11,963 nt of DNA from Nocardioides cavernaquae (GTDB lineage Bacteria; Actinomycetota; Actinomycetes; Propionibacteriales; Nocardioidaceae). The notes beneath the pieces were generated by a model, which worked only from the letters and a program-made list of their open reading frames with translations, was not told the DNA's origin and did not search any database. Positions 1-11,963 of this stretch are shown here, piece by piece. Both the position numbers and the translations under genes were made by a program. Each line of letters opens with the position of its first letter. The first letter of the stretch is position 1. The stretch spans positions 1-11,963 of the forward strand of contig NZ_QYRP01000001.1 of assembly GCF_003600895.1 (NCBI RefSeq), read 5' to 3'.

Positions 1-574
1 GAAGTCAGTCGTGCCCAGCGGGACGTAGGTCTCGCTGACGATGGACGAGGCACTGTCCTGGAGCGCGATGCGTGCCGTCGCGCCGGTCACCCGAGGGAAG
101 ACGTAGTCGTTGCCGACGATCGCCCAGCGGCCGGTGCCGAGTTCCTCGCGCATCCAGTGCGCCGCCGGAGGAGCTGGTTGATCGGACGCTCGCCGAGCAT
201 GAAGACGCCGCGCGTGTCGTCGCGGCCCTCGTGCATCGCAGCGAAGGCGTAGAGCACTCGGCCGCCGACGCGCTGGGTGATGGCCTGACGCACCGCGGAG
301 ATGTGCCAGCCGCCACGGCCTCCACCCGACCGCTGTCGACGAGCGTGCCAACCTCCGCAGCGACGACCTCAGGCGCGCGGCCACCGTCGACGACGATCAG
401 CTCGACCTGGCGTCCCCCGATGCCGTCCACTGCATTGAGCTGCTCGACCGCGAGCTCGCCACAGGCGAGGCACGACGGACCGTAGATCCCGGTCGGACCC
501 TGCAACGGCACCACGAAGGCGATCGCGACGGTCTCCCGCACGCGATCCGTCAGGGGTGCGGCTCCAGTGGGCAC
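1..574 (-). pseudogene. AmiC/UrtA-like substrate-binding protein, left copy, partial and frameshifted
   Basis: This is the mirror copy of the gene at 11062 onward, cut by the window start. It starts with GTG at 572-574, with a GGAGG ribosome site (580-584 on the complementary strand) 5 nt upstream. The first ~90 residues are in frame. A missing base at 310-311 then shifts the frame after the VEAVA stretch, and a second missing base at 167-168 shifts it again after NQLL. The right copy has both of these bases but lacks a different one near 11315. The breaks are therefore most simply sequencing errors rather than true inactivation. Combining the two arms gives one continuous periplasmic-binding-fold protein; this copy encodes only the part up to the GTTDF region. 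Confidence 0.8.
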
Positions 575-615
575 CGTTACCTCCGATTTGACCGTTGGCC
601 ACCTAGGATAGGCGC
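575..615. promoter_or_regulatory. Divergent promoter region, marR / binding-protein gene, left copy
   Basis: Forty-one bases separate the two divergent start codons. On the plus strand TAGGAT (604-609) sits exactly 6 nt before the marR ATG. This is the spacing of a -10 box for a leaderless transcript, common in actinobacteria. On the minus strand the overlapping TATCCT is a plausible -10 for the binding-protein gene, whose transcript would carry a leader with a GGAGG ribosome site. The two promoters would share the same bases, so the genes may compete for or co-respond to one regulator. No clear -35 boxes at standard spacing were seen. Confidence 0.5.
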
Positions 616-1083
616 ATGACCGACGTCAGCACCGGCGCTCTGCCGCAGAGTGACGCAGTCGACGCGCGCCCGGCCGCCGGTCTGACCTTGCTCCTCAAGC
701 ACGCCGAGCAGGTCGTCAAGCAGCGCCTCCAGCCGCTGCTCGACGAGGTCGACCTGACCCTCGACCACTGGCGGATCATGTCCGTGCTGCTCGTGCAGCC
801 CGGCCTGACGATGACGACGATCGCGGATTCGGCCGTCGTGCCCGCCGCGACGCTGACGCGCCTGGTCGACCGTCTCGCCGAGCAGGCGATCATCGTGCGG
901 CGCATCGACGCGGCCGACAAGCGTCGCGCCGTCGTGGCCCTCTCCCCACGCGGTCAGACCCTCGCACGTCGGCTTCGTGCTGCCGAGCAGTCGGTGGAGG
1001 TCGATCTGGTCTCCGCCGTCGGCACCGATCGGTCGGGCGCGCTGATGCGTGACCTGGCGGTCCTCCCCCACGTCGCGGGCTGA
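616..1083 (+). CDS. MarR-family transcriptional regulator, left copy
   Basis: This is a 155-residue winged-helix regulator, a normal length for MarR. It would act in the cytoplasm as a DNA-binding dimer. The N-terminal helix runs over about 20-45. The helix-turn-helix lies around 65-90, with TLTRLVDRL as the recognition helix. The wing carries the family signature D-K-R-R at 101-104 followed by LSPRG. The dimerisation helices after residue 112 are shorter than in some members. The ATG at 616 is chosen because TAGGAT ends 6 nt before it, as expected for a leaderless mRNA; there is no ribosome site. It lies 52 bp upstream of the qor gene on the same strand, with a candidate operator between them, so autoregulation and control of qor are likely. 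Ligand unknown. Its sequence is identical to the right copy. Confidence 0.9.
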   Translation: MTDVSTGALPQSDAVDARPAAGLTLLLKHAEQVVKQRLQPLLDEVDLTLDHWRIMSVLLVQPGLTMTTIADSAVVPAATLTRLVDRLAEQAIIVRRIDAADKRRAVVALSPRGQTLARRLRAAEQSVEVDLVSAVGTDRSGALMRDLAVLPHVAG

Positions 1084-1097
1084 GCACGCCGCGGCGT

Positions 1098-1118
1098 TTG
1101 ACTTCAAGTCCGCTTGAA
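1098..1118 (+). promoter_or_regulatory. Candidate MarR operator upstream of qor, left copy
   Basis: TTCAAG (1103-1108) and CTTGAA (1113-1118) form a perfect 6-bp inverted repeat with a 4-bp gap, a 16-bp footprint typical of MarR dimers. The left half overlaps TTGACT (1098-1103), a -35-like hexamer, so a bound regulator would occlude a qor promoter here. No convincing -10 box follows at 17 bp. A 10-bp palindrome, CGCCGCGGCG, lies just upstream at 1087-1096 and may be chance in GC-rich DNA. Binding by the adjacent MarR protein is inferred from position and symmetry only. Confidence 0.55.
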
Positions 1119-1135
1119 CATTCAGGCTCGTGGTC

Positions 1136-2148
1136 ATGCGAGCGATCCAACTCCACGCCTTCGGCGATCCTGACCGCCTTGTCCTCGACGACCTGCCCGA
1201 CCTGAGCCCGGACCCGACCAGGTCCGGATCGCGGTGGAGTCGAGCGGAGTGCACCTCCTCGACACCAGCCTGCGCCGCGGCGAGACCGGGCCCCTCCCGC
1301 TTCCGGAGCTGCCGACGGTGCCGGGTCGTGAGGTCGCCGGCACCGTCGATGCAGTCGGTGACGCGGTCGATCCGGAGTGGCTGGGCAGGCGCGTCGTCGC
1401 GCACCTGGGTCCCGTTCCCGGCGGCTACGCGCAGCAGGCGGTGACCTCGCTCGCGAACCTGATCCCGGTTCCCGCCGGGCTCACCCTGGACGAGGCCGTT
1501 GGCCTCGTCGGCACGGGGCGAACCGCGGAGGGCATCCTGGAGCAGGCGGGTCTCTCCGCCGAGGACACCGTCCTGATCCCTGCGGCGGCGGGCGGTCTCG
1601 GGTGGCTCCTCACCCAGGCCGCACTCACGGCCGGCGCGACGGTGATCGCCGCCGCAGGCGGGCCGGAGAAGGTACGCCGCCTACGCGAGCTCGGCGCGCA
1701 GGCCGTCGACTACCACGAGCCGGACTGGGCCGCGGCGATCGGCCGCGCTGCCACGGTCGTGCTGGACGGGGTGGGTGGCGCCATCGGCCGTCGGGCGATG
1801 CACCAGCTCGCCCCGGGCGGCCGGATGCTGATGTTCGGCTACTCCTCGGGCACGCCGACCGAGGTCACGACGGCAGACCTGATCGCCCTCAACATCTCCG
1901 CGGGGTGGAACCTCGGGCCGCGGATGTTCGCCCGCCCGGGAGGCATCCGCGGGCTGGCCGAGCAGGCACTGGCGAGGGGCGCTCGTGGCGAATGGCGACC
2001 GCTCATCTCGGCGTACCCGCTCGAGGAGGCGGCGCGGGCCCACCGCGACCTGGAGGAACGGCGGACTGTCGGGAAGGTGGTGCTCCGGTCCTCGCCCGGT
2101 CAGTCCTCACCCAGCGTGGAGAACGCCACGACCCCGCGGCGCATCTGA
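1136..2148 (+). pseudogene. Zinc-independent quinone oxidoreductase, left copy, single-base frameshift
   Basis: This is the mirror copy of the intact gene at 9487-10500. The first 26 codons are in frame from the ATG at 1136. One C is then missing in the run at 1207-1209 (the partner has four G at 10426-10429), and the frame changes until the stop at 2148. All downstream residues match the right copy. The loss sits in a C run and the other arm is intact, so this is most likely a read error rather than a genuine pseudogene. The distal 49 bp (2100-2148) overlap the 3' end of the opposing helY. Confidence 0.85.
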
Positions 2149-4901
2149 TCGGAGGCCGCACGGGCGACGTTGCGCAGCGGGGTGCCGGCGGCGGCCGAGG
2201 CGATCTGGTCGGTGAGGTCGAGCAGCTGCTTGATCCAGCGCACGAAGTCACCGGCCGCCTGACCGGTCTGCCGGAGCACGTCGTCCAGGTCGTCGCCCTC
2301 GGCCCACCGATAGGCAGCCCAGGCGAAGCCCATGTCGGGCTCGCGCAGGAACTCGAGCCCGTTCTCCTTCTCCAGCACGTCCAGCTGGGCCCACAGGTGC
2401 ACCATCTCGGCGACGACCTGCTTCACCTTGTCCCCGGGCAGGCGAGGCACGGCCTGGTCGTCCGCGCGACGGCCCTCGAAGACGAGGACGGAGAGCACCG
2501 CGGCGAGCTCGGGCGGGGTGAGGTCGTCCCAGAGCCCGGCGCGCAGCGACTCTGCAGCGAGCAGGTCCATGTCGGTGTGGATCCGCATCAGCTGGCGGCC
2601 CTGGTCGGTGACCGTGGTGGTGTCCTCGTCGTCGAGCGAGAGGTAGTCCAGGCTGATCAGCACGTCGCACACCCGGTCGAACTGTCGCGCGATCGTGTTG
2701 GTGCGGGACTCGATCCGGCGCTGGAGCGTTGCGGAGTCGCGCTGCAGCTTGAACCAGCGCTCTGCCCACCGGGCGTGGTCCTCGCGGTCCGGGCAGTTGT
2801 GGCACGGGTGCTCGCGCAGCTGGCGCCGGAGCCGGTCGGCCTCGGTGAGCTCGGCCCGCGCCTCCTGCTCGCGGGCGGCCACCGACGGCCCGCGACCGGT
2901 CGGGGGCGGCGGGGTCAGGCCGTGGGTCTTCTCGCGCAGCGCGTTGACGACGTCGCGACGCATCTGCGGGTTCCGCCCGCTGAAGCCGCGCGGGATCCGC
3001 ACGCTCCCGAGCGCCTTCACCGGGGTGCCGAAGTCCATCATGGCGAGCCTGCGGGCCTGACGATCGGCGGTCACGACGTAGGGACGGGGGCCCTCGGGGG
3101 TGATGCCCGGCTCGATGACGACCGCGAAGCCGGAGTACTTGCCGTTCGGCACCATGATGATGTCGCCCGGCCTCAGCTTCTCCAGCGACGCCGCTGCTTC
3201 GCTGCGACGGTCGTTGCGCCGGTCCCGCGCACCCGCCTTCTCGGCGTCGGAGATCCGGCGCCGCAACGCGGCGTACTCCATGAAGTCCCCGAGGTGGCAC
3301 GTTGCGGCCTCGACGTAGCCGTCGAGCGCGTCCTCCGCCTTCTTGTGCTGGCGGGCCAGGCCGACGACTGCGCGGTCCGCCTGGAACTGTGCGAACGACG
3401 ACTCGAGGAGCTCGCGGGCGGTGGCCCGCCCGAACTGCTGGACCAGGTTGACGGCCATGTTGTAGCTGGGCCGGAACGACGATCGCAGCGGGTAGGTGCG
3501 CTTCGACGCGAGGCCGGCCAGCTCCTTGGGGTTGGTCCCCTGCTGCCAGAGCACGACGCCGTGGCCCTCGACATCGAGACCACGACGGCCGGCGCGACCG
3601 GTGAGCTGGGTGTACTCCCCCGGGGTGATGTCGGCGTGGGTCTCGCCGTTCCACTTGGTCAGCTTCTCGATGACGACGGTGCGCGCGGGCATGTTGATGC
3701 CGAGGGCCAGGGTCTCGGTCGCGAAGACGGCCTTGCAGAGACCGCGCTGGAAGAGCTCCTCGACGCATTCCTTGAACGTCGGCAACATGCCGGCGTGGTG
3801 CGACGCGACACCGCGGGTGAGGCCGTCGAGGAACCCGTCGTAGCCGAGCACCTGCAGGTCGTCCGGAGGAAGGTGGCGCACCTTGGACTCCACGTAGGCG
3901 AAGATCTCGTCGCGCTCGTCCGCGGTGGTGAGCCGCAGGTTGGACTCAAGGCACTGGGTGACCGCGGCGTCGCAGCCGACACGGCTGAAGATGAAGACGA
4001 TGGCTGGCAGGAGGTTGTCGCGCTGGAGGCGCTCGATGACGTCCACCCGGCTGGGCGTCCAGACGCGGCGGCCGTTGCCCACGTTCTTCTGGCCGGGCTT
4101 GCGCTTGTCGCGGGGACTACGCCGGTCACTGGTGCGCCCTGATGCCCAGTCGTCACGGGCCACCCGGAGCAGCTGCGGGTTGACCGGCGCTCCTTCGCGC
4201 ACGAAGCCGGCCTTGGCATCGGCGTCGGAGTCGGCGAAGAGGTCGTGCATCTGCTTGCCGACGATCACGTGCTGGAAGAGCGGGACCGGTCGACGCTCCT
4301 CGACGATCGTGGTGATCTCGCCGCGGACCGTCTCGAGCCAGTCGCCGAACTCCTCCGCGTTGGAGACAGTCGCGCTGAGCGAGACGAGAGCGACCGACTC
4401 GGGCAGATGGATGATCACTTCCTCCCAGACCGCGCCACGCATGCGGTCGGCGAGGTAGTGGACCTCGTCCATGACGACGTAGCCGAGACCCGTGAGCGTC
4501 CGGGACCCGGCGTACAGCATGTTGCGGAGGACCTCGGTCGTCATGACGACGATGGGAGCGTCGCCGTTGACCGAGTTGTCGCCGGTGAGCAGCCCGACCT
4601 GCTCCGGCCCGTAGCGCTGGACCAGGTCGTGGAACTTCTGGTTGGACAGCGCCTTGATGGGCGCGGTGTAGAACGCCTTGCGCCCCTGGCTGAGGGCCAG
4701 GTGGATGGCGAACTCGCCCACGATGGTCTTGCCGGAGCCGGTTGGCGCGGCAACGAGTACGCCGCGTCCCTGCTCGAGCTCGTGGCAGGCGCGGACCTGG
4801 AAGTCGTCCAGCGGGAAGTCGTAGAGCTCGGCGAACTCCGCGAAGACCGGGAACTCCTGGCGCTGGCGGAAGGCGGTGTTCTGCTCTGAAGGTGTGCCCA
4901 C
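2100..4901 (-). CDS. helY: HelY: Ski2-like DEAD/DEAH-box helicase with DSHCT domain (intact copy)
   Basis: This is a 933-residue superfamily 2 ATPase predicted to unwind nucleic acid, probably RNA, in the cytoplasm. Visible motifs: Walker A APTGSGKT at 52-59, Ia PIKALSNQK at 81-89, II DEVH at 145-148, III SAT at 176-178, IV IVFIFSR at 301-307, V ATETLALGINMP at 394-405 and VI QLTGRAGRRGLD at 432-443. An HPCHNCPDRE segment with two cysteines and two histidines lies past the middle, and a DSHCT-type helical domain covers roughly the last 180 residues. Length and layout match mycobacterial HelY (Rv2092c), which also follows tatC. The GTG start at 4899-4901 is 25 bp after the tatC stop and 6 nt downstream of a TAGGGT box. 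This is the only unbroken copy in the window; the right copy carries several indels. Its precise cellular role is not established by the sequence. Confidence 0.93.
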   Translation of the reverse strand: MGTPSEQNTAFRQRQEFPVFAEFAELYDFPLDDFQVRACHELEQGRGVLVAAPTGSGKTIVGEFAIHLALSQGRKAFYTAPIKALSNQKFHDLVQRYGPEQVGLLTGDNSVNGDAPIVVMTTEVLRNMLYAGSRTLTGLGYVVMDEVHYLADRMRGAVWEEVIIHLPESVALVSLSATVSNAEEFGDWLETVRGEITTIVEERRPVPLFQHVIVGKQMHDLFADSDADAKAGFVREGAPVNPQLLRVARDDWASGRTSDRRSPRDKRKPGQKNVGNGRRVWTPSRVDVIERLQRDNLLPAIVFIFSRVGCDAAVTQCLESNLRLTTADERDEIFAYVESKVRHLPPDDLQVLGYDGFLDGLTRGVASHHAGMLPTFKECVEELFQRGLCKAVFATETLALGINMPARTVVIEKLTKWNGETHADITPGEYTQLTGRAGRRGLDVEGHGVVLWQQGTNPKELAGLASKRTYPLRSSFRPSYNMAVNLVQQFGRATARELLESSFAQFQADRAVVGLARQHKKAEDALDGYVEAATCHLGDFMEYAALRRRISDAEKAGARDRRNDRRSEAAASLEKLRPGDIIMVPNGKYSGFAVVIEPGITPEGPRPYVVTADRQARRLAMMDFGTPVKALGSVRIPRGFSGRNPQMRRDVVNALREKTHGLTPPPPTGRGPSVAAREQEARAELTEADRLRRQLREHPCHNCPDREDHARWAERWFKLQRDSATLQRRIESRTNTIARQFDRVCDVLISLDYLSLDDEDTTTVTDQGRQLMRIHTDMDLLAAESLRAGLWDDLTPPELAAVLSVLVFEGRRADDQAVPRLPGDKVKQVVAEMVHLWAQLDVLEKENGLEFLREPDMGFAWAAYRWAEGDDLDDVLRQTGQAAGDFVRWIKQLLDLTDQIASAAAGTPLRNVARAASDQMRRGVVAFSTLGED

Positions 4902-4926
4902 ACCCAGACCCTAGTCGGGGTGTGGG
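4897..4926 (-). promoter_or_regulatory. helY start-site stem-loop and leaderless-type promoter, left copy
   Basis: On the coding strand CCCACACCC (4926-4918) pairs perfectly with GGGTGTGGG (4905-4897), leaving a 12-nt loop. The distal stem contains the GTG start codon of helY. The loop holds most of a TAGGGT -10-like box (4913-4908) lying exactly 6 nt before that start. In readthrough mRNA from tatC the hairpin would mask the start. In a leaderless transcript beginning at GTG the hairpin could not form. Confidence 0.5.
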
Positions 4927-5763
4927 TCAGATGGCCGACGCCTCGTCGGGCGAGAGCCCGGCATAAGGATCGCGCGCTGCCCGGCGCCGGTCGTTGAACC
5001 GCGCGATCCCCTCGGAAAGCAGGAAGAGCAGCACCATCGGCACCGCGAGCGCGGTCATGGTGAACGGGTCGGTCGACGGGGTGGCAAGAGCCGCAAAGAC
5101 GAAGACGCCGATGACCATCCACGCCCTGTGCTTCCCGAGCGACTCCCCCTTGACCACTCCGGCCAGGTTGAGCAGGACCACGAAGACCGGGATCTCGAAC
5201 GCGATGCCAAAGACCAGCAGTGTCCGGCTGAAGAACGAGAGGTACTCGTTGAAGTCGACCAGGTTGGTGAAGTTGTCCGGGGTGAACCCGATCAGGACCT
5301 CGAGGCCCTTCGGGAGCGTCAGGTAGCCGAGCAGGACGCCGAGCAGGAAGAGCGGACCCGCGATGACGACGAAGATCGCCGTCCACTTCTTCTCCCGGCG
5401 ATGCAGGCCCGGGAGGACGAACGCCCAGAACTGGTAGAGCCACAGCGGTGCGGTGAGCACGCTCGTGGCGAGCGCGGAGAGCTTGAGGTAGACCATCAGG
5501 GGCGCACCTGCGCCCTGGATGATCGGCTCGGTGGTGCCTTCCGGCAGCACCTTCTGCGCCTGCTCGTAGGGACCGAAGACGAGGTCGAGCAGCTGGTCGT
5601 GGAAGACCAGCGAGACGGCGAACCCGACGAGCCAGATCAGCGCGATCTTGACGATGCGCGCACGAAACTCACGGAAGTGGTCCGAGAGCGCCATCCGTCC
5701 GTCGGGTCCGACGGGGTGCGCGGGCGCGCCAGAGAGGAGCCGGATCAGGCCGGACCCGAACAC
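4927..5763 (-). CDS. tatC: Sec-independent (twin-arginine) protein translocase subunit TatC, left copy
   Basis: This is a 278-residue multispanning membrane protein, the Tat translocase subunit that recognises twin-arginine signal peptides. Six hydrophobic segments lie near residues 38-54, 95-118, 127-149, 178-204, 213-228 and 235-252. Family hallmarks are visible: DHFREFR at 28-34 with the conserved Glu32, YQFWAFVLPGL at 110-120, FGIAFEIPV with Glu190 at 185-193, and the ATPSTDPF loop at 227-234. The GTG start gives a ~23-residue extension before the MALSDHF core start, as in actinobacterial TatC proteins; initiation at the internal ATG (codon 24) is the alternative. It is identical to the right copy. 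Upstream of this copy the sequence turns into the palindrome centre, so its natural tatA partner is cut off. Confidence 0.95.
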   Translation of the reverse strand: MFGSGLIRLLSGAPAHPVGPDGRMALSDHFREFRARIVKIALIWLVGFAVSLVFHDQLLDLVFGPYEQAQKVLPEGTTEPIIQGAGAPLMVYLKLSALATSVLTAPLWLYQFWAFVLPGLHRREKKWTAIFVVIAGPLFLLGVLLGYLTLPKGLEVLIGFTPDNFTNLVDFNEYLSFFSRTLLVFGIAFEIPVFVVLLNLAGVVKGESLGKHRAWMVIGVFVFAALATPSTDPFTMTALAVPMVLLFLLSEGIARFNDRRRAARDPYAGLSPDEASAI

Positions 5764-5775
5764 GAGGGGAATACC

Positions 5776-5810
5776 TCAGCTGGCGTCGGTGGGCTGTCGC
5801 CGTCGACGAC
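5776..5810 (-). pseudogene. Remnant of tatA 3' end, left copy
   Basis: This is the mirror of the 5831-5866 codons that precede tatC. The stop codon (complement of 5776-5778) is present. A missing T near 5795 shifts the frame relative to the right arm, and the coding sequence stops at the fold after about 11 codons. It is too short to identify alone; the assignment comes from the right-arm copy and its position. Confidence 0.5.
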
Positions 5811-5830
5811 GCTCCACCGTCGAGGGTGAG
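5811..5830. other. Asymmetric spacer at the palindrome centre
   Basis: These 20 bases (gctccaccgtcgagggtgag) are the only central bases not symmetric about the fold. They are bounded by GTCGACGAC on the left (5802-5810) and GTCGTCGAC on the right (5831-5839), which are the innermost paired bases. A short inverted repeat around an unpaired loop is what a snap-back or template-switch event leaves. In the right-hand reading frame the spacer encodes residues that run smoothly into the tatA tail, so it probably belongs to the right-arm genome sequence. Allowing a few indels, the spacer itself can almost be folded around a central CTCGAG, so base-calling noise at the turn cannot be excluded. Confidence 0.85.
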
Positions 5831-5866
5831 GTCGTCGACGGCGACAAGCCCACCGACGCCAGCTGA
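5813..5866 (+). CDS. Probable tatA C-terminal end, truncated by the palindrome centre
   Basis: The last codons read STVEGEVVDGDKPTDAS followed by TGA at 5864-5866, directly ahead of tatC. An acidic, polar, low-complexity tail of this kind is typical of actinobacterial TatA, the small pore-forming Tat component, and tatA precedes tatC in Mycobacterium and relatives. The identification rests on synteny and composition; the membrane helix and amphipathic helix that would prove it lie beyond the fold and are absent here. Codons upstream of 5811 are palindrome, not true tatA sequence. The stop overlaps a TGAGGT ribosome site for tatC. Confidence 0.55.
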   Translation, partial: STVEGEVVDGDKPTDAS

Positions 5867-5880
5867 GGTATTCCCTCGTG
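5864..5880 (+). promoter_or_regulatory. Ribosome binding site coupling the tatA stop to the tatC start
   Basis: TGAGGT (5864-5869) contains both the stop codon of the upstream gene and a GAGG Shine-Dalgarno core, 9 nt before the tatC GTG at 5878. The arrangement suggests translational coupling of the two Tat subunits. It supports the GTG as the tatC start over the downstream ATG at 5947. Confidence 0.55.
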
Positions 5881-6714
5881 TTCGGGTCCGGCCTGATCCG
5901 GCTCCTCTCTGGCGCGCCCGCGCACCCCGTCGGACCCGACGGACGGATGGCGCTCTCGGACCACTTCCGTGAGTTTCGTGCGCGCATCGTCAAGATCGCG
6001 CTGATCTGGCTCGTCGGGTTCGCCGTCTCGCTGGTCTTCCACGACCAGCTGCTCGACCTCGTCTTCGGTCCCTACGAGCAGGCGCAGAAGGTGCTGCCGG
6101 AAGGCACCACCGAGCCGATCATCCAGGGCGCAGGTGCGCCCCTGATGGTCTACCTCAAGCTCTCCGCGCTCGCCACGAGCGTGCTCACCGCACCGCTGTG
6201 GCTCTACCAGTTCTGGGCGTTCGTCCTCCCGGGCCTGCATCGCCGGGAGAAGAAGTGGACGGCGATCTTCGTCGTCATCGCGGGTCCGCTCTTCCTGCTC
6301 GGCGTCCTGCTCGGCTACCTGACGCTCCCGAAGGGCCTCGAGGTCCTGATCGGGTTCACCCCGGACAACTTCACCAACCTGGTCGACTTCAACGAGTACC
6401 TCTCGTTCTTCAGCCGGACACTGCTGGTCTTTGGCATCGCGTTCGAGATCCCGGTCTTCGTGGTCCTGCTCAACCTGGCCGGAGTGGTCAAGGGGGAGTC
6501 GCTCGGGAAGCACAGGGCGTGGATGGTCATCGGCGTCTTCGTCTTTGCGGCTCTTGCCACCCCGTCGACCGACCCGTTCACCATGACCGCGCTCGCGGTG
6601 CCGATGGTGCTGCTCTTCCTGCTTTCCGAGGGGATCGCGCGGTTCAACGACCGGCGCCGGGCAGCGCGCGATCCTTATGCCGGGCTCTCGCCCGACGAGG
6701 CGTCGGCCATCTGA
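5878..6714 (+). CDS. tatC: Sec-independent (twin-arginine) protein translocase subunit TatC, right copy
   Basis: This protein is residue-for-residue the same as the copy at 4927-5763: six membrane segments, Glu32 in DHFREFR, Glu190 in FGIAFEIPV, and a charged cytoplasmic tail ending DEASAI. It docks folded, cofactor-bearing export substrates with twin-arginine signals. This copy keeps its natural upstream context: the end of a probable tatA, an overlapping ribosome site and a GTG start. It is followed 25 bp downstream by helY, so a tatA-tatC-helY transcription unit is likely. If the palindrome is an artefact, this is the same gene counted twice. Confidence 0.96.
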   Translation: MFGSGLIRLLSGAPAHPVGPDGRMALSDHFREFRARIVKIALIWLVGFAVSLVFHDQLLDLVFGPYEQAQKVLPEGTTEPIIQGAGAPLMVYLKLSALATSVLTAPLWLYQFWAFVLPGLHRREKKWTAIFVVIAGPLFLLGVLLGYLTLPKGLEVLIGFTPDNFTNLVDFNEYLSFFSRTLLVFGIAFEIPVFVVLLNLAGVVKGESLGKHRAWMVIGVFVFAALATPSTDPFTMTALAVPMVLLFLLSEGIARFNDRRRAARDPYAGLSPDEASAI

Positions 6715-6744
6715 CCCACACCCCGACTAGGGTCTGGGTGTGGG
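6715..6744 (+). promoter_or_regulatory. helY start-site stem-loop and leaderless-type promoter, right copy
   Basis: CCCACACCC (6715-6723) pairs with GGGTGTGGG (6736-6744), a 9-bp perfect stem directly after the tatC stop, with the helY GTG (6740-6742) inside the 3' strand. TAGGGT (6728-6733) ends 6 nt before the GTG. No Shine-Dalgarno sequence is visible at normal spacing, which favours leaderless initiation. There is no U-run, so it is not a classical terminator. Confidence 0.5.
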
Positions 6745-9535
6745 CACACCTTCAGAGCAGAACACCGCCTTCCGCCAGCGCCAGGAGTTCCCGGTCTTCG
6801 CGGAGTTCGCCGAGCTCTACGACTTCCCGCTGGACGACTTCCAGGTCCGCGCCTGCCACGAGCTCGAGCAGGGACGCGGCGTACTCGTTGCCGCGCCAAC
6901 CGGCTCCGGCAAGACCATCGTGGGCGAGTTCGCCATCCACCTGGCCCTCAGCCAGGGGCGCAAGGCGTTCTACACCGCGCCCATCAAGGCGCTGTCCAAC
7001 CAGAAGTTCCACGACCTGGTCCAGCGCTACGGGCCGGAGCAGGTCGGGCTGCTCACCGGCGACAACTCGGTCAACGGCGACGCTCCCATCGTCGTCATGA
7101 CGACCGAGGTCCTCCGCAACATGCTGTACGCCGGGTCCCGGACGCTCACGGGTCTCGGCTACGTCGTCATGGACGAGGTCCACTACCTCGCCGACCGCAT
7201 GCGTGGCGCGGTCTGGGAGGAAGTGATCATCCATCTGCCCGAGTCGGTCGCTCTCGTCTCGCTCAGCGCGACTGTCTCCAACGCGGAGGAGTTCGGCGAC
7301 TGGCTCGAGACGGTCCGCGGCGAGATCACCACGATCGTCGAGGAGCGTCGACCGGTCCCGCTCTTCCAGCACGTGATCGTCGGCAAGCAGATGCACGACC
7401 TCTTCGCCGACTCCGACGCCGATGCCAAGGCCGGCTTCGTGCGCGAAGGAGCGCCGGTCAACCCGCAGCTGCTCCGGGTGGCCCGTGACGACTGGGCATC
7501 AGGGCGCACCAGTGACCGGCGTAGTCCCCGCGACAAGCGCAAGCCCGGCCAGAAGAACGTGGGCAACGGCCGCCGCGTCTGGACGCCCAGCCGGGTGGAC
7601 GTCATCGAGCGCCTCCAGCGCGACAACCTCCTGCCAGCCATCGTCTTCATCTTCAGCCGTGTCGGCTGCGACGCCGCGGTCACCCAGTGCCTTGAGTCCA
7701 ACCTGCGGCTCACCACCGCGGACGAGCGCGACGAGATCTTCGCCTACGTGGAGTCCAAGGTGCGCCACCTTCCTCCGGACGACCTGCAGGTGCTCGGCTA
7801 CGACGGGTTCCTCGACGGCCTCACCCGCGGTGTCGCGTCGCACCACGCCGGCATGTTGCCGACGTTCAAGGAATGCGTCGAGGAGCTCTTCCAGCGCGGT
7901 CTCTGCAAGGCCGTCTTCGCGACCGAGACCCTGGCCCTCGGCATCAACATGCCCGCGCGCACCGTCGTCATCGAGAAGCTGACCAAGTGGAACGGCGAGA
8001 CCCACGCCGACATCACCCCGGGGGAGTACACCCAGCTCACCGGTCGCGCCGGCCGTCGTGGTCTCGATGTCGAGGGCCACGGCGTCGTGCTCTGGCAGCA
8101 GGGGACCAACCCCAAGGAGCTGGCCGGCCTCGCGTCGAAGCGCACCTACCCGCTGCGATCGTCGTTCCGGCCCAGCTACAACATGGCCGTCAACCTGGTC
8201 CAGCAGTTCGGGCGGGCCACCGCCCGCGAGCTCCTCGAGTCGTCGTTCGCACAGTTCCAGGCGGACCGCGCAGTCGTCGGCCTGGCCCGCCAGCACAAGA
8301 AGGCGGAGGACGCGCTCGACGGCTACGTCGAGGCCGCAACGTGCCACCTCGGGGACTTCATGGAGTACGCCGCGTTGCGGCGCCGGATCTCCGACGCCGA
8401 GAAGGCGGGTGCGCGGGACCGGCGCAACGACCGTCGCAGCGAAGCAGCGGCGTCGCTGGAGAAGCTGAGCCGGGCGACATCATCATGGTGCCGAACGGCA
8501 AGTACTCCGGCTTCGCGGTCGTCATCGAGCCGGGCATCACCCCCGAGGGCCCCCGTCCCTACGTCGTGACCGCCGATCGTCAGGCCCGCAGGCTCGCCAT
8601 GATGGACTTCGGCACCCCGGTGAAGGCGCTCGGGAGCGTGCGGATCCCGCGCGGCTTCAGCGGGCGGAACCCGCAGATGCGTCGCGACGTCGTCAACGCG
8701 CTGCGCGAGAAGACCCACGGCCTGACCCCCGCCCCCGACCGGTCGCGGGCCGTCGGTGGCCGCCCGCGAGCAGGGGCGGGGCCGAGCTCACCGAGGCCGA
8801 CCGGCTCCGGCGCCAGCTGCGCGAGCACCCGTGCCACAACTGCCCGGACCGCGAGGACCACGCCCGGTGGGCAGAGCGCTGGTTCAAGCTGCAGCGCGAC
8901 TCCGCAACGCTCCAGCGCCGGATCGAGTCCCGCACCAACACGATCGCGCGACAGTTCGACCGGGTGTGCGACGTGCTGATCAGCCTGGACTACCTCTCGC
9001 TCGACGACGAGGACACCACCACGGTCACCGACCAGGGCCGCCAGCTGATGCGGATCCACACCGACATGGACCTGCTCGCTGCAGAGTCGCTGCGCGCCGG
9101 GCTCTGGGACGACCTCACCCCGCCCGAGCTCGCCGCGGTGCTCTCCGTCCTCGTCTTCGAGGGCCGTCGCGCGGACGACCAGGCCGTGCCTCGCCTGCCC
9201 GGGGACAAGGTGAAGCAGGTCGTCGCCGAGATGGTGCACCTGTGGGCCCAGCTGGACGTGCTGGAGAAGGAGAACGGGCTCGAGTTCCTGCGCGAGCCCG
9301 ACATGGGCTTCGCCTGGGCTGCCTATCGGTGGGCCGAGGCGACGACCTGGACGACGTGCTCCGGCAGACCGGTCAGGCGGCCGGTGACTTCGTGCGCTGG
9401 ATCAAGCAGCTGCTCGACCTCACCGACCAGATCGCCTCGGCCGCCGCCGGCACCCCGCTGCGCAACGTCGCCCGTGCGGCCTCCGATCAGATGCGCCGCG
9501 GGGTCGTGGCGTTCTCCACGCTGGGTGAGGACTGA
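6740..9535 (+). pseudogene. helY: HelY helicase, right copy, broken by several apparent sequencing indels
   Basis: This copy is the same as the intact gene at 2100-4901 up to codon ~576, so the whole motor (Walker A, DEVH, SAT, QLTGRAGRRGLD) is intact. One G is then missing near 8468 after SLEKL. Two bases are missing within 8726-8735 and two more within 8771-8781, and one G at 9338-9339. Together these six lost bases move the true reading through all three frames before it returns to the original frame and ends ...STLGED at the 9533-9535 stop. The net loss is a multiple of three, and each lesion has an undamaged partner in the left arm. I read this as uncorrected long-read error, not a decayed gene. 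The final 49 bp overlap qor on the opposite strand. Confidence 0.9.
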
Positions 9536-10500
9536 CCGGGCGAGGACCGGAGCACCACCTTCCCGACAGTCCGCCGTTCCTCCAGGTCGCGGTGGGCCCG
9601 CGCCGCCTCCTCGAGCGGGTACGCCGAGATGAGCGGTCGCCATTCGCCACGAGCGCCCCTCGCCAGTGCCTGCTCGGCCAGCCCGCGGATGCCTCCCGGG
9701 CGGGCGAACATCCGCGGCCCGAGGTTCCACCCCGCGGAGATGTTGAGGGCGATCAGGTCTGCCGTCGTGACCTCGGTCGGCGTGCCCGAGGAGTAGCCGA
9801 ACATCAGCATCCGGCCGCCCGGGGCGAGCTGGTGCATCGCCCGACGGCCGATGGCGCCACCCACCCCGTCCAGCACGACCGTGGCAGCGCGGCCGATCGC
9901 CGCGGCCCAGTCCGGCTCGTGGTAGTCGACGGCCTGCGCGCCGAGCTCGCGTAGGCGGCGTACCTTCTCCGGCCCGCCTGCGGCGGCGATCACCGTCGCG
10001 CCGGCCGTGAGTGCGGCCTGGGTGAGGAGCCACCCGAGACCGCCCGCCGCCGCAGGGATCAGGACGGTGTCCTCGGCGGAGAGACCCGCCTGCTCCAGGA
10101 TGCCCTCCGCGGTTCGCCCCGTGCCGACGAGGCCAACGGCCTCGTCCAGGGTGAGCCCGGCGGGAACCGGGATCAGGTTCGCGAGCGAGGTCACCGCCTG
10201 CTGCGCGTAGCCGCCGGGAACGGGACCCAGGTGCGCGACGACGCGCCTGCCCAGCCACTCCGGATCGACCGCGTCACCGACTGCATCGACGGTGCCGGCG
10301 ACCTCACGACCCGGCACCGTCGGCAGCTCCGGAAGCGGGAGGGGCCCGGTCTCGCCGCGGCGCAGGCTGGTGTCGAGGAGGTGCACTCCGCTCGACTCCA
10401 CCGCGATCCGGACCTGGTCGGGTCCGGGGCTCAGGTCGGGCAGGTCGTCGAGGACAAGGCGGTCAGGATCGCCGAAGGCGTGGAGTTGGATCGCTCGCAT
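9487..10500 (-). CDS. Zinc-independent NAD(P)H:quinone oxidoreductase, MDR family (intact copy)
   Basis: This is a 337-residue cytosolic medium-chain dehydrogenase/reductase, predicted to reduce quinones or related enones with NADPH. The GroES-like N-terminal domain spans ~1-115 and includes VPGREVAGTV at 62-71. The Rossmann domain follows, with the nucleotide-binding AAAGGLG at 150-156, DGVGG at 211-215 and LAPGGRMLMFG at 225-235. The catalytic and structural zinc cysteines of alcohol dehydrogenases are absent. The ATG at 10498-10500 is preferred because MRAIQLHAFG is a typical family start; a GTG two codons upstream is possible, and neither has a strong ribosome site. The family normally ends near GKVVL (313-317). 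The last ~20 residues are an extension read antisense to the helY 3' end. The gene follows marR with a candidate operator between them, so it is probably the regulated target. Confidence 0.92.
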   Translation of the reverse strand: MRAIQLHAFGDPDRLVLDDLPDLSPGPDQVRIAVESSGVHLLDTSLRRGETGPLPLPELPTVPGREVAGTVDAVGDAVDPEWLGRRVVAHLGPVPGGYAQQAVTSLANLIPVPAGLTLDEAVGLVGTGRTAEGILEQAGLSAEDTVLIPAAAGGLGWLLTQAALTAGATVIAAAGGPEKVRRLRELGAQAVDYHEPDWAAAIGRAATVVLDGVGGAIGRRAMHQLAPGGRMLMFGYSSGTPTEVTTADLIALNISAGWNLGPRMFARPGGIRGLAEQALARGARGEWRPLISAYPLEEAARAHRDLEERRTVGKVVLRSSPGQSSPSVENATTPRRI

Positions 10501-10517
10501 GACCACGAGCCTGAATG

Positions 10518-10533
10518 TTCAAGCGGACTTGAA
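10518..10533 (-). promoter_or_regulatory. Candidate MarR operator between marR and qor, right copy
   Basis: TTCAAG (10518-10523), a 4-bp gap and CTTGAA (10528-10533) form the same 16-bp inverted repeat seen at 1103-1118. It lies 17 bp upstream of the qor ATG and 19 bp past the marR stop, a position suited to repressing qor separately from marR. It is a prediction from symmetry and position. Confidence 0.55.
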
Positions 10534-10552
10534 GTCAAACGCCGCGGCGTGC

Positions 10553-11020
10553 TCAGCCCGCGACGTGGGGGAGGACCGCCAGGTCACGCATCAGCGCGCC
10601 CGACCGATCGGTGCCGACGGCGGAGACCAGATCGACCTCCACCGACTGCTCGGCAGCACGAAGCCGACGTGCGAGGGTCTGACCGCGTGGGGAGAGGGCC
10701 ACGACGGCGCGACGCTTGTCGGCCGCGTCGATGCGCCGCACGATGATCGCCTGCTCGGCGAGACGGTCGACCAGGCGCGTCAGCGTCGCGGCGGGCACGA
10801 CGGCCGAATCCGCGATCGTCGTCATCGTCAGGCCGGGCTGCACGAGCAGCACGGACATGATCCGCCAGTGGTCGAGGGTCAGGTCGACCTCGTCGAGCAG
10901 CGGCTGGAGGCGCTGCTTGACGACCTGCTCGGCGTGCTTGAGGAGCAAGGTCAGACCGGCGGCCGGGCGCGCGTCGACTGCGTCACTCTGCGGCAGAGCG
11001 CCGGTGCTGACGTCGGTCAT
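10553..11020 (-). CDS. MarR-family transcriptional regulator, right copy
   Basis: This is identical in sequence to the protein at 616-1083: a winged helix with TLTRLVDRL in the recognition helix and the DKRR wing motif. No cysteine is present in the protein, so thiol-oxidation sensing of the OhrR type is unlikely, and a small-molecule ligand is more plausible. It is divergent from the AmiC-like gene (41 bp between start codons) and upstream of qor. Its ATG lies 6 nt from the ATCCTA complement of a TAGGAT box, implying a leaderless message. Confidence 0.9.
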   Translation of the reverse strand: MTDVSTGALPQSDAVDARPAAGLTLLLKHAEQVVKQRLQPLLDEVDLTLDHWRIMSVLLVQPGLTMTTIADSAVVPAATLTRLVDRLAEQAIIVRRIDAADKRRAVVALSPRGQTLARRLRAAEQSVEVDLVSAVGTDRSGALMRDLAVLPHVAG

Positions 11021-11061
11021 GCGCCTATCCTAGGTGGCCAACGGTCAAATCGGAGGTAACG
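11021..11061. promoter_or_regulatory. Divergent promoter region, marR / binding-protein gene, right copy
   Basis: On the minus strand TAGGAT (complement of 11027-11032) is positioned 6 nt before the marR ATG. On the plus strand TATCCT (11026-11031) can serve as -10 for the binding-protein gene, and GGAGG (11052-11056) is its ribosome site, 5 nt from the GTG. The palindromic hexamer CCTAGG sits at the core. The tight overlap means transcription from one side should affect the other. Confidence 0.5.
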
Positions 11062-11963
11062 GTGCCCACTGGAGCCGCACCCCTGACGGATCGCGTGCGG
11101 GAGACCGTCGCGATCGCCTTCGTGGTGCCGTTGCAGGGTCCGACCGGGATCTACGGTCCGTCGTGCCTCGCCTGTGGCGAGCTCGCGGTCGAGCAGCTCA
11201 ATGCAGTGGACGGCATCGGGGGACGCCAGGTCGAGCTGATCGTCGTCGACGGTGGCCGCGCGCCTGAGGTCGTCGCTGCGGAGGTTGGCACGCTCGTCGA
11301 CAGCGGTCGGGTGGAGCCGTGGCGGGCTGGCACATCTCCGCGGTGCGTCAGGCCATCACCCAGCGCGTCGGCGGCCGAGTGCTCTACGCCTTCGCTGCGA
11401 TGCACGAGGGCCGCGACGACACGCGCGGCGTCTTCATGCTCGGCGAGCGTCCGATCAACCAGCTCCTCCCGGCGGCGCACTGGATGCGCGAGGAACTCGG
11501 CACCGGCCGCTGGGCGATCGTCGGCAACGACTACGTCTTCCCTCGGGTGACCGGCGCGACGGCACGCATCGCGCTCCAGGACAGTGCCTCGTCCATCGTC
11601 AGCGAGACCTACGTCCCGCTGGGCACGACTGACTTCGGCGCCGTCCTGCGAGATCTCGAGGGTGGTGACGTCGATGGCGTGATGATGCTCCTGATGGGGC
11701 AGGACGCCGTCCACTTCAACCGCCAGTTCGCACGTTTCGGGCTCGATGACCGACTCACGCGGCTGAGCCCCGCCGTCGAGGAGAACACCCTCCTCGCTGG
11801 CGGCCCCGCTGCCCACAACGGTCTCTACGCGGCGGCGGCCTACTTCGATGGGCTCGACACCGCGGAGGGCAATGAGCTGGCGAGCGCCTACTACGCGCGG
11901 TTCGGGCGCTGGGCGCCTGTGCTCAACGCGGTCGGGGAGTCCTGCTACGAAGCCATCCTCTTC
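11062..11963 (+). pseudogene. AmiC/UrtA-like periplasmic-binding-fold protein, 3' incomplete, one apparent frameshift
   Basis: GTG start with a good GGAGG site. The reading is in frame to VE at ~11316, where one G is missing relative to the left arm. After adding it the protein continues as AVAGWHISAVRQA and stays open to the window end, about 300 residues without a stop. The fold resembles the type 1 periplasmic-binding family of UrtA (urea/amide transport) and AmiC (cytoplasmic amide sensor): IYGPSCLACGELAVEQLN near the start, GNDYVFPR, SETYVPLGTTDF, ENTLLAGG, and an Asp-Thr-Ala-Glu segment near the end. The N-terminus is polar and lacks a lipoprotein or Sec signal, so the product may be a cytoplasmic sensor like AmiC rather than a transporter subunit. 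The ligand cannot be told. The sequence beyond 11636 has no mirror copy. Confidence 0.8.

What the first reader, a model, noticed from the sequence alone, without database searches (positions are those of the whole stretch)
1..11636. An 11.6-kb near-perfect palindrome spanning a housekeeping locus
Two 5.8-kb arms mirror each other across a 20-bp spacer. Palindromes this long with such a short spacer are normally cut by SbcCD-type nucleases and deleted in bacteria. The arms show no substitution that I could find, only about a dozen 1-base indels in or near G/C runs, and these break different genes in each arm. The simplest reading is a fold-back read (both strands read through, or amplification/template-switch chimera) left in the assembly. 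The biological alternatives are a recent inverted duplication or a covalently closed hairpin replicon end, which would also read as a palindrome.
Basis: partly seen in the sequence, partly recalled or inferred. Interest (0 to 1): 0.75.

Follow-up and report, generated by a model that had tools for sequence, protein, structure and literature searches.

The report
Fold-back read left as a contig
This 12-kb DNA palindrome is almost certainly a sequencing or library artefact: one stretch of an ordinary bacterial chromosome was read out and back, then left in the assembly as a separate small contig.

Summary
The palindrome is really in the sequence: arms 1-5810 and 5831-11636, a 20-nt spacer, no substitution in the arms. 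It is almost certainly not a feature of the organism. The window is a whole 11,963-bp contig (C1) of a two-contig, Nocardioides-like assembly. Except for 2 nt at the centre, C1 lies entirely inside the 3.455-Mb contig C2, which held one copy in the three searches made and runs unbroken through the fold point in the 3' end of tatA. Against C2 the arms lack 12 bases, with no extra base and no substitution, and no position is hit in both arms.

A second, unrelated fold-back ends C2 itself: the contig overruns its circular start by 10.8 kb, then turns and reads back 5.3 kb, lacking 16 bases, with no extra base and no substitution. Fold-back reads in the library explain both.

Caveat: SbcC and SbcD were not detected in this genome, so the nuclease argument is weak and a rare real fold-back molecule is not strictly excluded.

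The parts
1..5810 (.). Left arm: minus strand of C2 2900102 down to 2894289, with 4 missing bases
5811..5830 (.). Spacer at the turn: 2 nt of unknown origin (w5811-5812) and 18 nt of C2 (2894271-2894288) present only in the second arm
5831..11636 (.). Right arm: plus strand of C2 from 2894289 up, mirroring the left arm, with 8 missing bases
11637..11963 (.). Overhang of the right arm: continues along the same chromosomal gene to C2 2900429; not unique DNA
4927..5763 (-). tatC, left copy, intact (PF00902)
5878..6714 (+). tatC, right copy, intact
2100..4901 (-). helicase with DEAD and DSHCT domains (the name helY is recalled), left copy, intact, 933 aa
6740..9535 (+). same helicase gene, right copy, broken by missing bases at five places (after w8468, 8728, 8774, 8778, 9337)
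1130..2148 (+). zinc-binding dehydrogenase gene, left copy, broken after w1209
9487..10506 (-). zinc-binding dehydrogenase gene, right copy, intact, 339 aa
616..1083 (+). MarR-type regulator, left copy, intact
10553..11020 (-). MarR-type regulator, right copy, intact
1..574 (-). periplasmic binding protein gene (PF13458), 5' part only, left copy, broken after w168 and w311
11062..11963 (+). periplasmic binding protein gene, right copy, cut by the contig end, broken after w11315

Best explanation
The contig is a fold-back (duplicated-inversion) read. One DNA molecule covering C2 2894271-2900429 was read along one strand and then, without a recognised boundary, back along the other. Either the molecule's end had been closed into a hairpin during library preparation or amplification (a 3' end folding back and priming, or ligation), or the two strands were read in succession and not split. 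The assembler could not place the read on the circular chromosome and left it as its own small contig. Shown: the origin of both arms, the uninterrupted chromosome, the missing-base differences, and a second fold-back at the end of C2. Inferred: which step made the hairpin, the sequencing platform, and that few reads support the contig.
For: C1 is a complete contig contained in C2 except for 2 nt. C2 runs unbroken through the turn. The arms lack 12 bases, with none extra and none substituted, at positions not shared between arms, and the affected reading frames are open in C2. The turn lies at 48.6% of the contig length and the halves map 18 nt apart on opposite strands, which meets the position (within 200 bp) and symmetry (within 10% of the midpoint) criteria of Breakinator (PMC12870357). 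A second fold-back ends C2, at an unrelated site, lacking 16 bases with none extra and none substituted. None of 59 contig-start or contig-end stretches of 19 relatives had such a fold-back.
Against: No reads were available. SbcC and SbcD were not detected in this genome, so a real fold-back molecule might survive here. The absence of fold-backs in the sampled relatives also fits a peculiarity of this strain rather than of its library.
Confidence: 0.96

Rival explanations
1. Real but rare fold-back in the cell: after a double-strand break a 3' end folded back, primed synthesis and made a hairpin-capped or inverted-duplicated molecule, which was then sequenced. Such products are known in cells without Mre11 nuclease or SbcCD activity.
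For: SbcD (TIGR00619) and SbcC (PF13558) were not detected here, while 20 of 24 and 24 of 24 same-genus genomes matched. The second turn shares 6 nt (AGGAGC) in the geometry of fold-back priming. In yeast lacking Mre11 nuclease, and in E. coli without SbcCD and RecA at an interrupted palindrome, inverted duplications form (abstracts).
Against: C1's turn is nearly central and both arms end together at read-like length; an inverted duplication in a chromosome should have arms far longer than a read and junctions to other DNA. Fold-priming geometry is equally expected in a tube. G002, also without an SbcD match, showed no fold-back at either end of its single contig, a weak point since it looks finished.
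Confidence: 0.03
2. Recent inverted duplication of the locus, integrated in the chromosome or as an extrachromosomal palindromic amplicon.
For: The arms carry no substitutions, as a very recent duplication would.
Against: C1 has no flanking DNA other than the locus itself; none of the genes named on it is a replication gene; C2 gave a single copy in three searches. The differences are only missing bases and break genes. 47 of 57 relatives have a single tatC match; in the other 10 the extra matches lie on other contigs or hundreds of kb from the best one, at 33-73% identity to the query, some only fragments.
Confidence: 0.007
3. Covalently closed hairpin end of a linear replicon.
For: A hairpin end reads as a palindrome, and C2 also ends in one.
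Against: C2 continues past both fold points and its ends overlap directly over 10.8 kb, as an untrimmed circle does. No protelomerase (PF16684) match in this genome; a weak negative, since only 1 of 14 control genomes matched.
Confidence: 0.003

Closest known systems
Fold-back (duplicated-inversion) artefact reads in long-read data (Breakinator, PMC12870357; abstract, background, results and discussion read)
   Same: Second half maps to the same place on the opposite strand (18 nt apart), turn near the midpoint, almost no unmapped sequence at the turn
   Different: Here the object is an assembled, partly polished contig, not a raw read; the paper's data are human and mouse
Palindromic reads from whole-genome amplification or missing SMRTbell adapters (Pacasus, PMC6218980; passages)
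   Same: Artificial palindrome made of one genomic stretch; 0.5% of non-amplified PacBio reads in that study, attributed to false positives and missed or missing adapters
   Different: Whether this DNA was amplified, and on which platform it was sequenced, is unknown
Fold-back inverted duplications in SbcCD- or Mre11-deficient cells (PMC3315005, PMC10622511; abstracts)
   Same: Geometry of the turn, short shared sequence at the second turn, and apparent lack of SbcCD in this genome
   Different: Arms here end together at read-like length, there is no new chromosomal junction, and the differences are missing bases

Membership tests
Long-read fold-back artefact | The two halves map to the same place (within 200 bp) on opposite strands | tested here: met
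   C2 2894289 and 2894271 at the turn, 18 nt apart
Long-read fold-back artefact | Turn within 10% of the midpoint | tested here: met
   48.6% of 11,963 bp
Long-read fold-back artefact | Reference sequence continues normally through the turn | tested here: met
   C2 unbroken, intact tatA across the turn
Long-read fold-back artefact | Ordinary reads outnumber fold-back reads at the site | not testable with these tools
   No reads held
Integrated inverted duplication | Junctions joining the duplicate to other DNA | tested here: not met
   C1 has no sequence outside the locus except 2 nt at the turn
Hairpin-ended linear replicon | Sequence ends at the turn | tested here: not met
   C2 continues past both turns; its ends overlap directly by 10.8 kb
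Hairpin-ended linear replicon | Protelomerase gene | tested here: inconclusive
   PF16684: no match in the genome; only 1 of 14 controls matched
In-vivo fold-back in an SbcCD-negative cell | No SbcCD | tested here: met
   TIGR00619 and PF13558 not detected; searches with the G009 SbcD and SbcC proteins also empty, but without a positive control of their own
In-vivo fold-back in an SbcCD-negative cell | Inverted duplication present in cells, in several independent molecules | not testable with these tools
   No reads or DNA

The most novel reading that the evidence does not exclude
This Nocardioides-like strain appears to lack the hairpin nuclease SbcCD, and its DNA carries real, low-frequency fold-back molecules at unrelated chromosomal sites, two of which were caught by the assembly. 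If so, ordinary long-read sequencing would reveal how often broken ends fold back in a naturally SbcCD-negative bacterium.
Probability: 0.03. Interest if true: 0.5.

Novelty: not a real feature. Interest (0 to 1): 0.07.

Why it matters
It matters for data quality: the assembly carries about 28 kb of spurious or redundant sequence (the 11,963-bp contig and a 16,054-bp overrun on C2), which adds duplicate and broken copies of tatC, the helicase and other genes. Checking small contigs and contig ends for self-complementarity would catch such cases.

Tried and rejected
Rejected, with reasons under the rivals: hairpin telomere, integrated duplication, extrachromosomal amplicon. A structured RNA at the locus: no Rfam match at gathering threshold in 20 kb of C2. 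Adapters at the turn: three adapter sequences recalled from memory, in both orientations, scored no better than the best of 200 shuffles. Fold-backs elsewhere: of 85 loci tested (80 related loci and 5 stretches of this genome), inverted repeats of 200 bp or more appeared in 4: three pieces of C1 itself, and L057 (245 bp, 90%). Of 63 further stretches, inverted matches of 500 bp or more appeared in 2: the last 20 kb of C2, and L125 (724 bp, 77%, matching itself in place). The 59 of those 63 that come from relatives are 20 contig starts and 19 contig ends of 15 genomes, plus 20 contig starts only of 4 more; I chose genomes with few contigs, so this is not a survey and favours finished genomes. 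Paper searches: Nocardioides with SbcCD gave one paper, seen in the listing only; palindromic reads with missing adapters in bacterial assemblies gave one genome announcement, seen in the listing only; the listings supplied the five papers opened.

Full report
The window mirrors itself from 1 to 11636 at 99.74% identity (blocks). The arms are w1-5810 and w5831-11636, with a 20-nt spacer, w5811-5830.

The window is a complete contig. The genome in which it lies has 3,466,964 bases in two contigs: C1 (11,963 bp, the window) and C2 (3,455,001 bp). The closest named matches of its TatC are Nocardioides: N. phosphati 79%, N. jejuensis 74% (which may leave out records of the genome itself). The organism's name is not known; 'Nocardioides-like' is inferred from this.

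C1 is contained in C2. The left arm is the minus strand of C2 2900102 to 2894289; the rest is the plus strand of C2 2894271 to 2900429. Only two bases at the turn (w5811-5812) are unexplained; if two extra bases are allowed, the turn could share 4 nt (CACC/GGTG). The overhang w11637-11963 is more of the same chromosomal gene. So C1 has no unique flank on either side. Three searches of the genome, with 1,001 bases at the centre, 764 bases at the right end and the TatC protein, each found one full copy in C2 (one search also gave a 54-base match at 78% elsewhere in C2). C2 runs through the turn, which lies within the last 11 to 17 codons of an open 75-aa TatA frame (PF02416). It is followed by tatC (PF00902), a 933-aa DEAD/DSHCT helicase, a zinc-binding dehydrogenase, a MarR-type regulator and a periplasmic binding protein.

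The differences look like sequencing errors. Against C2, the arms of C1 lack 12 bases at 11 places, with no extra base and no substitution: 4 in the left arm and 8 in the right, none at the same chromosomal position. Two extra bases and two mismatches in the BLAST alignment of the left arm lie in the spacer, where that alignment runs past the turn. Nine of the 12 missing bases are in runs of two or more equal bases, three are not. The five C2 frames tested are free of stops, and the MarR protein is whole in C2. In C1 the helicase is whole only on the left, the dehydrogenase only on the right, tatC and MarR in both, and tatA and the binding protein in neither, partly because C1 does not span those two genes. 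Mutations gathered since a duplication would be expected to include substitutions (general knowledge, not tested here).

A second fold-back lies in the same assembly. In a comparison of the first and last 20 kb of C2, C2 1-10784 recurs directly at C2 3438948-3449722 (10 missing bases, 1 extra, no substitution), the usual overrun of an untrimmed circle; it implies a circle of about 3,438,947 bp. From there to its last base, 3455001, the contig is an inverted copy of C2 10620 down to 5320, with 16 missing bases, none extra and no substitution. The turn shares six bases, AGGAGC, between the strand end and a site about 160 nt upstream, as expected if a 3' end folds back and primes on itself. The first 20 kb of C2, which includes the same place, shows no inverted repeat, so the sequence continues normally there. 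Thus both contigs of this assembly carry a fold-back, at unrelated sites, each in a piece with many missing bases.

Controls. Of 59 contig-start or contig-end stretches from 19 relatives, none had an inverted repeat of 500 bp or more at 95% or more; one had a 724-bp self-match at 77%. Of 80 related loci from named records, one had an inverted repeat of 200 bp or more (L057, 245 bp, 90%). In this sample the fold-backs are peculiar to this assembly, which fits a library artefact but also a peculiarity of the strain.

Literature. Breakinator (PMC12870357; abstract, background, results and discussion read) describes the same object in long reads: about 0.55-0.6% of ONT genomic reads, 1-4% and at times 20-30% in another group's data cited there, virtually none in the PacBio HiFi data, and usually little sequence between the halves. 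C1 meets its position and symmetry criteria. Pacasus (PMC6218980, passages) found palindromes in 0.5% of non-amplified PacBio reads, attributed to false positives and missed or missing adapters. A comparison of long-read methods on E. coli (PMC8495745, passages) gives 0.02% to 3.17% chimeric reads of any kind, for the libraries with the lowest and highest share.

Results against this reading. In this genome neither SbcD (TIGR00619) nor SbcC (PF13558) was detected, although 20 of 24 and 24 of 24 same-genus genomes matched; some PF13558 matches there may be other SbcC-like proteins. Searches with the SbcD and SbcC proteins of G009 (families confirmed) were empty too, but the tool notes that, without a genome in which the query is known to match, an empty answer shows nothing. 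In E. coli without SbcCD and RecA, and in yeast without Mre11 nuclease, real fold-back inverted duplications form (abstracts). A rare in-vivo molecule is therefore not strictly excluded. I give it about 3%, because C1's turn is nearly central, its arms end together at read-like length, and fold-back reads are a documented library product.

Verdict: a fold-back read left in an assembly, not a biological feature. Confidence 0.96.

Noticed in passing
G000 C2 3438948-3455001 (L095 3947-20000): The chromosome contig overruns its own start by 10.8 kb and then ends in a 5.3-kb fold-back; 16,054 bp are redundant and the circle is about 3,438,947 bp.
   Followed up: yes
G000, whole genome: SbcD (TIGR00619) and SbcC (PF13558) were not detected, although 20 of 24 and 24 of 24 same-genus genomes matched; a possible natural loss of SbcCD.
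   Followed up: partly
window 1103-1118 (mirror 10518-10533): TTCAAGTCCGCTTGAA, a perfect 6+4+6 inverted repeat between the MarR-type gene and the dehydrogenase gene; a candidate operator (function inferred).
   Followed up: no
window 2100-2148; C2 local L004 11952-12000: The convergent helicase and dehydrogenase genes overlap by 49 bp at their 3' ends.
   Followed up: no
L057 13727-13970 and 15576-15823: Lentzea nigeriaca locus with an inverted repeat of about 245 bp at 90% identity, about 1.6 kb apart.
   Followed up: no
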